From Ryuthela nishihirai (taxonomy: Eukaryota > Arthropoda > Arachnida > Araneae > Heptathelidae), in contig JAWZYU010000020.1 in the NCBI GenBank assembly GCA_038380435.1, positions 44,300,307 to 44,364,306 of the forward strand: 64,000 bases of DNA. Direction: 5' to 3'. The notes beneath the pieces were generated by a model, which worked only from the letters and a program-made list of their open reading frames with translations, ran no database searches and had not been told where the DNA came from. The position numbers and the translations under genes are program-made. This document shows, piece by piece, positions 34,401 to 40,400 of this stretch (the stretch's first letter is position 1; each line of letters starts with the position of its first letter).

Positions 34401-37400
34401 GCTTGCCACAGAGGTCTGACAGGAGCCTGTCAGTTTATATGCCACAGTAGGAGATCTGAGAGGATGGCAGGACCTCAGCAGAAAGACGACACACACATCC
34501 ATGCCTTACCCGGGGATCGAACCCAGGTCCCTTAGAACAGTAGCCAAGCGTATTTGAAAACAGTTTTGGTTAATGACGATAATCATTTTCCGGATGGTTC
34601 TTAACATTTTTCGTCCAATTTTCTGGCACAATACACGAATATATTCCTCCAGCCCCGAGAACTTATGCGAATATGTTCCCACAGTATAGTAATTCTAATG
34701 TTCTCTAAACATTTCATTCTTTTTCATTCTTCATCCCCTGAACATTTCGTATAAACCACAATATTTCGTATTTTTACAATTTTGAAATAAGATTGTAGCC
34801 TGGCACGAGAAACACTGATTAAAAATTATATCGTTTTTCCGTGATATCTTTTACACAGCTAGCAGACAGTAATCCTAAATGTTTTCCCATCAAAGACAAT
34901 AATATTGTTACGACAGAAGGAATCTGGCAACCGAAAGCAAAAAGTTTCAGCCAACGAATAAGAACTTTGGGAGAATTTGGAGAAGAAGAGTGGAGCGTTA
35001 ACGGTCGTTGTATTGTAACGGTCGGTGAGTTCGAAAATGGACGGTGAGCTGTTCTGAGACAGTGCGCGTGAGTATCAAGAAGTAACTTGATGTGTTGTGT
35101 ATACGCGGAAGGATAAAAGTGGGATCTTTTATCGTTAAGTATCAAGAAGTAACTTGATGTGTTGTGTATACGCGGAAGTATAAAAGTGGGAACTTTTATG
35201 GCTAACTTCGAATGTCTACACGGACTGTCTTTTTGTTCGGCTAGTGTGTGAAAAGTTATTAGCACAGGACGAGAATTGGTTTACGAGTGAAGATCTTCGG
35301 GTGACCTGGTAAATCAAGTAAAAGGTAGTATTTAGTAAAATACACAGAGCTGATATTGTGTGCTCTACGCAGGAAGATTGATGACTTGTGCATGTTAATA
35401 GTTGATTTGTTAATAAGATACTTCATCCATATTTCCTTTGTAACAATTTACCTTGTATTGAATTTGGTTTTGAAATATAGCTTTTAATACTCACGCTCAG
35501 TGGCTATCCATTTTTGTAATCCGCAACACTTGGTGTCAGAAGTGGGATAATTTATTGAATGCTGTTAACTAGAAGTATGGATGAATTAGTAAAGTTGATA
35601 AATGACTTGAAAGCCGATATTAAAGGTGATATAGCTGCCCAAAGCAACAAAATTGGTGACCTTGCTAGACAAAGTGATAACTTGAAAGCCGATATGACTA
35701 CGCTGATGACTGATATTAAAAGTGATCTAGCTGCCCAAAGCGATAAAATAGGTGACTTGAAAGCCGAAATGGCCGCACAAAATACTGAGATGAGAGCTGA
35801 AGTGGCTTCTCAAGTTGGTAAGATTATTGATCACTTCAAGGATCATAAAACCGAACTCAATAGACAATGCAATAGTTTAAATGTTGAATTTGTCAGTGAA
35901 AAAGATGATCTTGATAGTGTTAAGTTAGATTGTAAACATGGAAAAGAGAAAGGCAACGCATATAAAAATGTGGATCTGCTACTGGAAATCAAGAATCGAA
36001 GAGATAGCGCAGATAATGCCTTTGACCACGCAACTACTGGTAATGCATGGCAGAGTGTCTATGTCGCTGGTGACATGTCTAGGAACTGTGAAGAACAATC
36101 AGAGTGCTGTGAGACTATACAGTATGCTTTGCACTTCAAAATACCTAGGTATACAAGTCTGGCACAATCTGAAGAGAGATCCACACGAAAGGTATTCTAT
36201 TCCTCGCTGTCAGCAAAATGCGTCATGGACAGTTATCGCAAAGGCAGAGTAACGAGTGGTAATAAGGGGGAACGAAACAGAGTTTACGTTTCGCAGAGAG
36301 GTCCGAGTAAAGAAGAGGCGTCCATTCATCACAGATACAAAGTGCCATTCGACGTTACCGGGGAAGTCGGAGAGATTTTTCCAAAGCATATAGCCACACT
36401 CGAATCGTTTATAGAAAGTGGGGATTTAAGAAAGAATTCCGAAGAATGGCTTAGAAGCGTAACAGGTGATGCTAGTAAAAGAGCTTCAGGCAGAGACAGT
36501 ACTTCAAAGACTAACTTTCTGGATGAAACTAAGCCTCAGAGTTACGATCAGAGAGAAGTGAAGCCCTCAGAAAATCTTAACGTAGCCATGCTGAATTTCT
36601 TTTCTGAACAGTCAATGCACAGATTTGGACATTATAACCATTTAGATTATAAGAATATAGAAAAGTTTTATCACGATTACAAGAGCTCTAAAGTGGACAA
36701 TATCATGTTACAGAACTCGTCGCTGATCTCCAGAATGAACAATTTGGCAATCATGACTGATATTTCCCTGGCTAATTACAATGAGAGCTCCAAGAAAGTG
36801 AATTCGGAAGAAACAGCAAATATGACCTCCTCGGGTCATGTGTTTTGCTGGAGACCCGAGTGGCGCCATCGGATGGTAGATGAAAACAGCACAGGAGGTG
36901 TCGGCAACAAAGTGTCTTGTCTTGGCTCCTGCACTTGCTGCTTTAGGTCTCAAGGTCCCTATGATCTCCGGTCGTGCTCTCCAATTGACGGGAGATACTC
37001 TGTACAAATTGGAATCCATCCCTGGCTTCACAGTCGACTGCACTAAAGATAAAATCGAGCAGATGATGGAAGACGTCGGATGCTGCATCGTAGGACAGAC
37101 AGTGGAGCTGGTGCCAACAGATAAGGAGATTTACCGCTGCAAGGATATGACGGCTACCGTAGATAGCGTTCCTCTAATGAGATGCTCAATTGTGTCCAAA
37201 AAGCTGGCTGAAGGAGTGTGCGCTTTGGTTTATGATGTTGAATTCGGAAAAGGAGCTATTGATCTCATCAGTACAGAAGACGCTGTTGATTTAGTTAAGA
37301 AAATGGTTGCAGCATCACAAGCTCGTGGAATGAAGAGTTCAGCTGTTATCAGCAACATGGATTCACCTCTTGAAAACTCTGTTGACAACTCTCTGGAAGT

Positions 37401-40400
37401 GATGGAAGCTGTTCAGTGTTTCCTTGGTAACGGATCCTTGGAACTGCAAGAGCTCGTCGAAGAGTTAGGAGAACTTCTGCGTTTTGTGAACATTGTGGAT
37501 AATAGGGTAGATGAAGCATCACGTGCCCGCAAGGTTCTGCATAACGGCAATGCTTTGAACAAGTTTCGTAACATGTTAATAGAACAAGGAGTATCTGAAG
37601 ATGTTGCAAGCTGGCTATGTGAAGGTAAAACAGAAAAAATATTGCTAGCAGCCCGACACATCACTGATTTCACTTATACAGGAGAAACAGGTAAGGTTGT
37701 CGGATTAGAAGCTGCAGTTCTAGCAAGAGTATGGAAGGAGGAGATGGACCGAAGCGCTAAAAAGAATTATGGAGCTGATATTATAATTGTGAAGCACCTT
37801 GGGGATCAAATTGAATCAGGTGAAATATGGCTGAAGGTTCATCACGACAGTTCTGAATTAAGTGAAAGTCAACTGACAAAAGGGTCAGACTGGAGGATGA
37901 AACTCCTCCCTACATTTTATGTCACTAATGACTTTCATTCCTTGTTACTGTTGATAGAAGTAAAAATCCAAAGAAGAAAACTTGCGACAAAGAAGAAAAC
38001 TTTTTACAGGTTTTGCACGAAAACTCTTAGTCGATTCTTCTCCCTGCAGAGACATAAACGTGTTCACAAGGGCTATAGGCCTTACACGTATTATGTTTGT
38101 GGACGAGGCTTCAGTCAGAAAAGAAATCTACGTCATAATGAGATCCGCTTTCATTTTGACACAGACGTGGTATATCGCATTCGTCGACGTCCAGCTACAA
38201 AGTGCAAAGTGGTTCACGTGGATCGTTTGGCCCCGTTTCATCGAAGAACTGAAGAAACTTTGGAATCCAGAATTGTTCGGGACGAACAAGACCTAGGAAG
38301 GGGGCAGTGTTACGACAGAAGGAATCTGGCAACCGAAAGCAAAAAGTTTCAGCCAACGAATAAGAACTTTGGGAGAATTTGGAGAAGAAGAGTGGAGCGT
38401 TAACGGTCGTTGTATTGTAACGGTCGGTGAGTTCGAAAATGGACGGTGAGCTGTTCTGAGACAGTGCGCGTGAGTATCAAGAAGTAACTTGATGTGTTGT
38501 GTATACGCGGAAGGATAAAAGTGGGATCTTTTATCGTTAAGTATCAAGAAGTAACTTGATGTGTTGTGTATACGCGGAAGTATAAAAGTGGGAACTTTTA
38601 TGGCTAACTTCGAATGTCTACACGGACTGTCTTTTTGTTCGGCTAGTGTGTGAAAAGTTATTAGCACAGGACGAGAATTGGTTTACGAGTGAAGATCTTC
38701 GGGTGACCTGGTAAATCAAGTAAAAGGTAGTATTTAGTAAAATACACAGAGCTGATATTGTGTGCTCTACGCAGGAAGATTGATGACTTGTGCATGTTAA
38801 TAGTTGATTTGTTAATAAGATACTTCATCCATATTTCCTTTGTAACAATTTACCTTGTATTGAATTTGGTTTTGAAATATAGCTTTTAATACTCACGCTC
38901 AGTGGCTATCCATTTTTGTAATCCGCAACAATATTATAAAAGCATAGAAATAATCTTCCGGTTATTCAACAGTTGCACATTAGTTGCGAATATGCTCCCA
39001 CAGACTTAGAGTAATTCTAATGCTCTCTAAACTTTTTCCCTTGAACATTTCGTATAAACCTATACATTATTCGCTTTTTTTACAATTTTGAAATAAGATT
39101 GCAGCCTGGCTCGAGAAACGCTGATCAAAATTATATCGTTTATCCGTGATGTCTTTTACACAGCTAGCAGACAGTAATCCTAAATATTTTTACTTGGAAA
39201 TGTGTGAGAATATACAACCCGTATTCCAGTTTTCCGTATTCCAAAACTATGGAAGCTTACTTGGAAATATGTCTTCTAATATTTACGGTTGTTTCGGAAT
39301 ACAAGAGCTTTTTAGACATAGGAATCCGATTTTAAATAACATTCATTAGGGCCATCTGAATTCCACCTATCAGCCATAAAACGTATCGTTAAATTTCTTA
39401 CCTGCATACCAATTACAGCATAGATGAAAAATAGCATAACTATCAGCAGAGCTACATAAGGCAGTGCCTAGAAGAAACATAAAATATCCATTAACAATTT
39501 GTTATTATGATTTAATATATATATATGTTATTCAACGAATACATGACTATAAATTGCACATATTACCAAAATTGATGGTCACTTATGTTTTATATAAATG
39601 GAAAGTCACATTCAAAGCTCTTTAACTTCGAAAATAAAATTTATGGAAAAATATCATTGGTGACAAACCGAAGATTTCAGTAGTCAATAATACTTGTTTA
39701 ATATTTAGAAAGTTATAGAAGGATAACGTTTAGCAACAGATTTTCTAAACTACACATTTATCTGGAATGTTTATTTAAAACAAAAATAATAACTGCTACT
39801 GAGAAAAATGTGATTTTAAAAGTTAGTGTCATGATTCTCTCGGTTTTTATCAGTTTTGACGAATATGTTGAGGATAAACTAACTGCGGCATATGTTGTTA
39901 AATATTCCAGCTTCAATAATTCTTTGAATACTAAACGAAAATTATTTAAGTTCGAGATTTAAAGTTTTTTCATGACTTTAAATTTATTTCCACTGATATG
40001 TTTTTGTAAAAAGCCTATTTTCAAAACTAGGGAGCTTCAAATTTGGCTTCAAATTCTTATAACAAGGATTTAGCAACTCTTTTGACAATATAATGTATTT
40101 AGTCGGAATGAGCTTACTTGGAAAGACTTTATGAAGGTCCACAGCAGAGTCCTAATGCCTTCTCCCCTGCTTAAAAGTTTGATCAGCCTCATCACCCGGA
40201 AGAGACGAAAAAAATTGATGCTAATTATGTTGGTTCCGGGCTGCAACGAAATAAGACAATTCAGAATGATCCAATCATTACATCAACTTTGATTTAGTTT
40301 ACTACTTAACTTCTGCATAATCAGTAGCTTTTATCACTTGCTCATAGAACCAGAGTGAAGGACAAGGGCAGATCTAAGGGAGGGTAACAATGAGATTATA

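What the first reader, a model, noticed from the sequence alone, without database searches (positions are those of the whole stretch)
34906..38930. An LTR retrotransposon that carries a captured thymidine phosphorylase gene
The element has all the cis parts of a Ty3/gypsy retrotransposon: LTRs, tRNA-Leu primer site, purine tract and 4-bp target duplication. Between them lies an intron-less thymidine phosphorylase domain fused in frame to a coiled-coil N-terminus. The only pol sequence is the last 40 or so residues of integrase. Landmarks such as STGGVG, VLAPALAALGLKVPMISG, TATVDS, ALVYDVEFGKGA and WLKVHH leave little doubt about the domain. A second copy at 58095-61832 has the same fusion, so capture came before amplification. 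Retroelement capture of a nucleoside-salvage enzyme in an animal is not something I know to be described. Such an enzyme could affect thymidine pools during reverse transcription, but that is speculation.
Basis: partly seen in the sequence, partly recalled or inferred. Interest (0 to 1): 0.93.

Follow-up and report, generated by a model that had tools for sequence, protein, structure and literature searches.

The report
Jumping elements carrying thymidine phosphorylase piece
In this animal genome a piece of a thymidine-salvage enzyme gene sits inside LTR retrotransposons (virus-like jumping elements) in place of most of their own genes; one short stretch of it matches at 1,991 places, the elements likely move with proteins borrowed from an intact relative, and the piece has likely passed between at least four kinds of such elements.

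Summary
The finding is real and larger than reported. Copy A (34906-38930) and copy B (58095-61832) are non-autonomous LTR retrotransposons with identical LTR pairs and 4-bp target duplications. They carry a thymidine phosphorylase (TP) segment without its N-terminal domain. Neither window copy encodes the whole segment: A has a frame break beside the STGGVG loop, B lacks 232 nt holding that loop. In the window's own 3.1-Gb genome a 34-base TP pattern has 1,991 matches (0 in the reversed control), and 100 of 149 scored TP places lie in open frames of at least 850 codons. A gag-pol relative with RT and integrase shares LTRs, coiled-coil start and integrase tail; a 2.2-kb cassette (middle, TP, zinc-finger remnant) replaces the rest. 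Nearly the same TP segment (97-98%) sits in four LTR backbones whose LTRs differ far more, and one copy joins TP to the relative's own integrase end, so template switching is the likely route. The catalytic His is lost in 24 of 28 copies of the youngest backbone, kept in 12 of 12 others. Amino-acid constraint on TP is not detectable after correction; stops and frameshifts are rarer than expected. Closest known case: maize Bs1.

The parts
34902..34905 (.). target-site duplication ATAT of copy A, left (right copy 38931-38934)
34906..35528 (+). 5' LTR of copy A, 623 bp, holding a duplicated 67/68-bp unit; one TATAAAA at 35179
35531..35548 (+). primer-binding site TGGTGTCAGAAGTGGGAT (tRNA-Leu by recall)
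   Evidence: tRNA identity recalled
35559..35947 (+). coiled-coil start of the frame, shared with the N-terminus of the partner's gag-pol
35948..36826 (+). cassette, middle segment, unidentified
   Evidence: no relative, no usable fold
36828..37890 (+). cassette, thymidine phosphorylase segment without its N-terminal domain; frame broken beside the STGGVG loop (about 36911)
38030..38163 (+). cassette, degenerate C2H2 zinc-finger piece
38164..38307 (+). integrase C-terminal tail (PF22938) and polypurine tract; 3' capture junction at 38164
38308..38930 (+). 3' LTR of copy A, identical to the 5' LTR
61213..61832 (-). 5' LTR of copy B (620 bp)
58937..61180 (-). copy B: open frame of 747 codons, coil-middle-truncated TP-start of zinc-finger piece; lacks 232 nt that copy A has
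58095..58714 (-). 3' LTR of copy B, identical to its 5' LTR; target duplication GTAT on both sides

Best explanation
[quoted passage not shown] Shown: shared LTRs, PBS, coiled-coil start and integrase tail with one gag-pol relative; both junctions against it; target duplications; near-identical LTR pairs; nearly the same TP segment in four LTR backbones; and one copy in which TP is joined to the relative's own integrase end. Inferred: a TP mRNA of a chelicerate was copied into an element by template switching inside virus-like particles; the cassette then passed between backbones by the same switching between co-packaged RNAs; the partner's Gag and Pol package, copy and insert it at ATAT-like sites. 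Also inferred, with less weight (about 0.55): selection keeps the frame translatable (for example for RNA stability or for packaging through the shared coiled coil) and does not keep TP chemistry.
For: TP identity. Structure of copies: 32 of 40 fetched copies showed both LTR edges; 30 of these 32 have matching 4-bp duplications: 25 ATAT, 4 ATAC, 1 ATAA. 15 of 28 pairs of long LTRs have no substitution (one identical duplicate locus counted). Copy number: 1,991 pattern matches, 0 in the reversed control. Partner: (150 scored of 5,510 candidates) lists a group of frames of 1,650-1,725 codons; in the one such element that I looked at, copy A matches LTR, PBS and coil at the 5' end and the integrase tail plus LTR at the 3' end, and pieces between carry RVT_1 (E 4.4e-37), Integrase_H2C2 (6.9e-20) and rve (2.6e-14). 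Cassette exchange: mean TP dS I-II 3.1%, I-III 2.7%, I-IV 1.9% against 1.9% within I (16, 4, 4 and 1 copies), while R-U5 identity to copy A falls to 80-92% in types II and III, U3 of type III does not align, and type IV matches a type-I LTR over 180 of 623 bases at 79%. Recombinant L056: TP cut at A 2355, then the partner's integrase end, in one open frame. Frame kept: in 27 young copies 2 distinct stops in middle plus TP against 9.2 expected (5.0+2.6+1.6); in-frame indels 7 of 9 in middle plus TP C-terminus against 7 of 33 in LTRs, p 0.003.
Against: No transcript, particle or transposition was seen. The donor gene was not found: no credible TP N-terminal exon in the genome, so 'captured from this host' is unshown, and introns of chelicerate TP genes were not examined. 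Only one partner element was looked at, in pieces. Ty3/gypsy is assigned by domain order and Pfam matches, without an RT tree. The 40 copies are 40 of the 44 places ranked 2-45 by PF00591 score, which favours intact TP. The uncorrected piN/piS of TP (0.53 +- 0.06) would suggest constraint on the protein; corrected for the LTR mutation spectrum it is 0.70 pairwise and 0.78 by site, p 0.25. The middle segment is complete in only 5 of 10 type II/III copies compared.
Confidence: 0.85

Rival explanations
1. The fusion protein itself works for the element: TP chemistry (thymidine and dNTP supply) or a TP-fold scaffold helps reverse transcription or particles, and is kept by selection.
For: Frames stay open in most scored copies (100 of 149 at least 850 codons by TP search, 108 of 136 by middle search). 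Backbones II-IV keep the His of the KHSTGG motif in 12 of 12 copies. Uncorrected piN/piS of TP is 0.53.
Against: The N-terminal domain is missing. The His is lost in 24 of 28 backbone-I copies. The Arg equivalent to human R202 is Lys in A and B and in 35 of 35 readable copies of 40. TP variants shared by three or more copies give omega 1.1 (15 N, 5 S). At positions at least 98% conserved in 120 TPs, copy A differs at 6 of 46, against a mean of 0.4 and at most 3 for single TPs.
Confidence: 0.12
2. Pure dead passenger: frames look open only because the copies are very young, and no selection acts on the frame.
For: LTR pairs are almost identical (median 0 substitutions in 28). Omega is not different from 1 in TP.
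Against: Differences between copies (LTR pi 1.7%) far exceed those within LTR pairs, so most arose before insertion; in that time stops (2 against 9.2) and frameshifts were avoided up to the TP end, while indels after it look like those of LTRs (3 of 12 in frame, p 1.0). Older copies carry more stops (7 against 11.1 expected, 11 copies). The sample was picked by TP score, which weakens this for the PF00591 part.
Confidence: 0.3
3. Each LTR backbone captured TP independently, so there was no exchange of a cassette.
For: LTRs of the backbones are very different; the middle segment is incomplete in 4 and only 83% alike in 1 of the 10 type II/III copies compared.
Against: TP matches copy A at 97-98% in all 37 copies compared (mean of the 27 type-I copies, each of the 10 others) and the zinc-finger piece follows in all 37, at 87-97% in the 10 others; TP dS between backbones is 1.9-3.1%. 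Repeated independent capture of TP plus the same zinc-finger piece is implausible.
Confidence: 0.04
4. A host TP retrogene family amplified by ordinary segmental duplication, with LTRs nearby by accident.
For: Some places look like duplicates of one another (L019/L020, L031/L032).
Against: LTR edges, target duplications and dispersal over many contigs.
Confidence: 0.01

Closest known systems
Bs1 of maize (LTR retroelement with transduced cellular gene segments forming a hybrid frame)
   Same: LTR element with incomplete pieces of several cellular genes fused into one chimeric frame (passages read in PMC5408686 and PMC13317346).
   Different: Animal; donor is a nucleoside-salvage enzyme; 1,991 pattern matches; nearly the same segment in four LTR backbones; a gag-pol partner sharing both ends found in the same genome. 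Copy number of Bs1 is not stated in the passages that I read.
LTR-mediated retroposition in metazoans (Tan et al. 2016, cited in PMC5408686)
   Same: Likely origin: template switching between an LTR element RNA and a cellular mRNA in the particle, often copying only part of the mRNA.
   Different: The passage read speaks of retrocopies; here the chimera became an amplifying family. The Tan paper itself was not held.
KIT-ligand and nectin3 captures by crocodilian endogenous retroviruses (PMC4299795, passages)
   Same: Host coding sequence captured by an animal LTR element and amplified; nectin3 replaced env.
   Different: Nine copies keeping the KIT-ligand frame and six nectin3 insertions are mentioned there, with purifying selection on the KIT-ligand frames; here 1,991 matches, gag-pol replaced, no detectable amino-acid constraint.
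Extra ORFs and dUTPase in bdelloid rotifer LTR retrotransposons (PMC5408684, abstract and passages)
   Same: Enzymes, including a nucleotide-metabolism one, inside animal LTR elements.
   Different: There gag and pol are kept and the enzyme is an added domain or ORF; here TP replaces most of gag-pol and is truncated.
TRIMs in bivalves (PMC6934838, search listing only)
   Same: Non-autonomous LTR elements of an animal.
   Different: TRIMs have a short internal part; here a long open frame with a host gene segment.

Membership tests
LTR retrotransposon, non-autonomous | paired LTRs TG..CA with short target duplications | tested here: met
   A and B; 30 of 32 copies with both LTR edges found; four more (L009, L024, L031, L033)
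LTR retrotransposon, non-autonomous | PBS and polypurine tract | tested here: met
   tRNA identity recalled, not tested
LTR retrotransposon, non-autonomous | no RT, protease or integrase core of its own | tested here: met
   Pfam scans of A, B and four other copies show no such family; above cut-off only PF00591 and, in A, L021 and L028, the integrase C-terminal tail PF22938
Ty3/gypsy | partner with RT upstream of integrase, integrase next to the 3' LTR | tested here: met
   one partner element: RVT_1 piece upstream of Integrase_H2C2/rve, integrase tail before the LTR
Ty3/gypsy | RT falls in the Ty3/gypsy clade | not tested
   no RT tree was made
Gene-capturing LTR element (Bs1-like) | cellular gene segment between the LTRs, copied from spliced RNA | tested here: inconclusive
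   TP runs without a break over about 340 codons, but the introns of the donor gene are unknown
Gene-capturing LTR element (Bs1-like) | capture precedes amplification | tested here: met
   TP and the zinc-finger piece present in 37 of 37 copies compared, between LTRs with target duplications
Thymidine phosphorylase (active enzyme) | N-terminal domain PF02885 present | tested here: not met
   absent in A and B and in four other copies; no PF02885 match in the genome besides the bacterial stretch
Thymidine phosphorylase (active enzyme) | KHSTGG motif and Arg of the base site (human K115, H116, R202; numbering recalled) | tested here: not met
   His kept in 4 of 28 backbone-I and 12 of 12 other copies; Arg is Lys in A and B and in 35 of 35 readable copies
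Thymidine phosphorylase (active enzyme) | phosphorolysis of thymidine | not testable with these tools
   needs an assay

The most novel reading that the evidence does not exclude
A host enzyme segment has become a selfish module in its own right: a cassette that hops between LTR-retrotransposon backbones by template switching, reached about 2,000 genomic sites, and keeps its reading frame open, through the coiled coil shared with the partner's Gag, so that its translated RNA or protein is taken into the partner's particles, while the enzyme itself is being discarded.
Probability: 0.35. Interest if true: 0.88.

Novelty: new variant of a known kind. Interest (0 to 1): 0.8.

Why it matters
As far as I read and recall, gene capture by LTR elements is best documented in plants, and the animal cases that I read concern few copies. 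Here capture, a gag-pol partner, a recombinant between the two, and exchange of the TP segment among four backbones can all be seen in one genome, so the steps from a cellular mRNA to a mass-amplified passenger become directly testable. The contrast between an open frame and an unconstrained enzyme asks what a non-autonomous element gains from being translatable.

Tried and rejected
Rejected: an intact active TP in the window copies (frame break in A, loop missing in B). Rejected: an intron for the 232-nt difference between A and B; the edges lack GT..AG and share short similarity around GATA (letters printed), so a deletion by template jump is likelier, and A is the ancestral state because it matches host TPs there. 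Rejected: segmental duplication alone. Weak: mosaic ancestry of A and B (middle 34 of 1003 differences against 19 of 1312 in TP to integrase, p 0.003; synonymous only, 10 of 167 against 7 of 289, p 0.07); the strongest peak is the repeat-rich coil, where alignment is uncertain.

Led nowhere: protein search with the coil plus middle (no hit at E<=10 among 4,777 candidates) and with the integrase tail (39 candidates, none at E<=1); PDB and Pfam with the middle; AlphaFold of the middle (mean pLDDT 29.4); viral contigs; host TP N-terminal exon; tRNA-Leu gene (not completed); the integrase tail in the own genome (not completed); NMD/packaging literature (two papers listed, neither on this). Papers for 'thymidine phosphorylase' with 'LTR retrotransposon' (1 paper) or 'retrotransposon' (15 papers, 10 listed): by titles none on such a capture; only open PMC papers are held.

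Script notes: one search stopped with an error after its first table; one search stopped before its last two segments, which redid. One search kept 26 of 40 copies for TP codons because fixed text patterns marked the ends; 14 were dropped (11 without the end pattern, 3 without the ESIPGF text in one frame). One search used 25 of these 26 (L020 left out). In one search I collapsed neighbouring indels by hand (internal 34 to 26, LTR 41 to 33) and left out A's own frame break and, for the test, the PF00591 part (3 of 4 in frame); the uncollapsed counts are 19 of 34 against 8 of 41 (p 0.0016). Among the other classes one was nominally below one (zinc-finger part, variants in two copies, 5 N to 7 S, p 0.018). 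One search left out L020 and L032 as duplicates.
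Full report
What is in the window. Copy A (34906-38930, +) has two identical 623-bp LTRs, a primer-binding site two bases after the LTR, a purine tract and the target duplication ATAT. Copy B (58095-61832, -) has identical 620-bp LTRs and the duplication GTAT. Between A's LTRs lie a coiled-coil start, an unidentified middle, a thymidine phosphorylase segment, a degenerate C2H2 zinc-finger piece and the C-terminal tail of an integrase. 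The TP call rests on PF00591 (E 1.2e-25), on human TP chains (best E 1.3e-62), on NCBIfam TP models matched below their cut-offs, as a truncated segment would be, and on the predicted fold of copy B's piece (mean pLDDT 78.7, human TP as best match with query TM 0.87).

In A the frame changes just after STGGVG, so that TP is spread over two overlapping frames. B is one open frame of 747 codons; a 232-nt stretch with the loop is absent. Neither copy encodes the whole segment. The N-terminal TP domain is missing from both. The eight other A/B indels inside the frame are all multiples of three, the three outside are not (p 0.006).

The family in its genome. The window is G000:C20:44300307-44364306 of a 3.11-Gb assembly. 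A PF00591 search gave 2,321 first-look candidates of which 150 were scored, all matching; the best one is bacterial trp-like DNA, and of the other 149, 100 lie in frames of at least 850 codons and 2 hold a stop inside the match. A search with the middle segment, independent of TP, gave 2,793 candidates, 136 scored, 108 in frames of at least 850 codons, none with a stop inside the match. A 34-base TP pattern with up to two mismatches has 1,991 matches and none in the reversed control. In 32 of 40 both LTR edges were found and 30 of these have matching target duplications: ATAT 25, ATAC 4, ATAA 1. The two without, L016 and L020, belong to pairs of places about 3.5 kb apart. LTR pairs longer than 600 bp differ by a median of 0 substitutions, with 15 of 28 identical in this sense: a recent burst.

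The partner. A search with the integrase C-terminal family (150 scored of 5,510 candidates) listed, among others, a group of frames of 1,650-1,725 codons. I looked at one such element, at C1:33970600-33977000, in four pieces. Copy A matches its LTR (95%), PBS and coiled-coil start at one end, and its integrase tail and LTR (95.9%) at the other. Homology stops at about window 35947 and resumes at 38164. The pieces between carry RVT_1 (4.4e-37), Integrase_H2C2 (6.9e-20) and rve (2.6e-14), with a weak protease match (0.0081). So the TP elements are derivatives of this gag-pol family, or of a sister, in which about 2.2 kb of foreign sequence replaced gag after the coiled coil and pol up to the integrase tail. 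Trans-mobilisation is the inference from this anatomy.

A cassette that changed backbones. Among the 40 copies TP sits in four LTR types: I (mostly 615-642 bp, partner-like; 28 copies, one an identical duplicate), II (about 457-493 bp; L011, L022, L027, L030, and L013, L034 by partial LTR matches), III (about 556-560 bp; L009, L024, L033, and L038 by a partial repeat) and IV (about 553-558 bp; L031 and its duplicate L032). Types III and IV have their own LTR pairs and, in L009, L024, L031 and L033, their own target duplications. TP identity to copy A averages 98.0% in 27 type-I copies and is 96.9-98.0% in ten type II/III copies; the zinc-finger piece follows in all 37; the middle is complete in 26 of 27 and in 5 of 10, partial in four and 83% alike in one. 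Mean TP synonymous divergence is 1.9% within I, 3.1% I-II, 2.7% I-III and 1.9% I-IV, while R-U5 identity to copy A falls to 80-92% in II and III and U3 of III does not align. LTRs and TP therefore have different histories. A direct recombinant exists: in L056 TP stops at A 2355 and continues, in one open frame, into the partner's own integrase C-terminus and a type-I LTR.

Is the enzyme kept? At positions conserved in at least 98% of 120 TPs copy A differs at 6 of 46; single TPs differ at 0.4 on average and 3 at most. The Arg equivalent to human R202 is Lys in A and B and in 35 of 35 readable copies of 40. The His of KHSTGG is lost in 24 of 28 type-I copies and kept in 12 of 12 others, so the motif was likely intact in the older cassette and eroded in the youngest, commonest group sampled. 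Roles of these residues in human and E. coli TP are recalled. Uncorrected piN/piS for TP is 0.53 +- 0.06 over 23 copies. With the mutation spectrum of the LTRs taken as neutral, it is 0.70 pairwise or 0.78 by site (p 0.25); over 26 copies omega is 0.81 (p 0.24), and variants shared by three or more copies give 15 N to 5 S, omega 1.1. In the middle, such shared variants give omega 0.60 (p 0.11). Amino-acid constraint is thus not shown.

Is the frame kept? In 27 young copies the distinct stops are 1 in the middle (5.0 expected), 0 in the PF00591 part (2.6) and 1 in the TP C-terminus (1.6); the 11 older or other copies have 5 (6.3), 1 (2.3) and 1 (2.5). Indels that are multiples of three are 7 of 9 in the middle and TP C-terminus, 3 of 12 in the zinc-finger and integrase part, and 7 of 33 in LTRs (p 0.003 against LTR, 0.03 against the tail; 32 copies, collapsed by hand). 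The PF00591 part was left out of that test because copies were chosen by score there. This favours selection on a translatable frame up to the end of TP, at modest strength.

Origin. In a tree of 31 rows (29 of the 120 listed database TPs plus A and B; midpoint root) the element TP groups with chelicerate TPs (100/97), next to spiders (90/72, below the star threshold), on a long branch of 0.92. The nearest database protein among those searched is Limulus TP at 46%. No credible TP N-terminal exon was found in the genome: one match at E 7.85, PF02885 only in the bacterial stretch, none; itself warns that an empty answer shows nothing. Donor species and date stay open.

Known relatives. Maize Bs1 is the closest in kind (passages of PMC5408686 and PMC13317346). 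Template switching in particles is the published route for LTR-mediated retrocopies (PMC5408686 passages citing Tan et al. 2016, not held). Crocodilian ERVs captured KIT-ligand and nectin3 (PMC4299795 passages), and bdelloid elements carry dUTPase and other enzymes (PMC5408684 abstract and passages). I found no report of TP capture in the open papers searched.

Noticed in passing
window 49248-49670 (-): Exon of an L-type voltage-gated calcium channel alpha-1 subunit (PDB match E 7.8e-31); the elements may lie in or near introns of this gene.
   Followed up: partly
L001 (G000:C16:11095665-11099411): 64% GC bacterial DNA with trpD- and trpC-like genes and a moaC-like frame (gene names by my reading) inside a 75-Mb contig: contamination, misassembly or transfer.
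   Followed up: partly
G000:C4:45129896 and 45133323; G000:C58:594209 and 597834: Pairs of TP elements about 3.5 kb apart, perhaps tandem elements sharing an LTR (the target duplication of the first does not match, L016 and L020).
   Followed up: no
L021, L031, L032, L047 (also L009, L038): Copies with a stretch bearing the motif NPKPIGEIC.TNSTGG; in L021 it follows the coil. A further variable module of unknown origin.
   Followed up: no
window 35559-35947 and the same part of other copies: The coiled-coil start differs in length between copies: 114 to 196 residues before CKHG in four copies measured; partner frames also vary in length, 1650-1725 codons.
   Followed up: no
G000:C13:61850455-61850820: A second place where the TP pattern lies close to a full integrase C-terminal match, likely another TP/partner recombinant like L056.
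   Followed up: no
window 34666-34885 and 38985-39190: Copy A is flanked on both sides by copies of a 200-bp repeat, 81% identical, so it inserted next to or between older tandem copies.
   Followed up: no
window 8822-9206 and twelve further places: Interspersed repeat of up to about 385 bp, 69-96% identical to the first, on both strands, SINE-like in length.
   Followed up: no
window 56969-57508; 56350-56413: 45-bp tandem array and, nearby, a tRNA-like match (Rfam 33 bits) that ARAGORN does not report.
   Followed up: no
window 21102-21479 (-) and 44937-45518 (+): Likely transposon remnants: a DUF4817 helix-turn-helix (E 3.2e-10) and a weak Tc3-type transposase match (E 0.0024).
   Followed up: no
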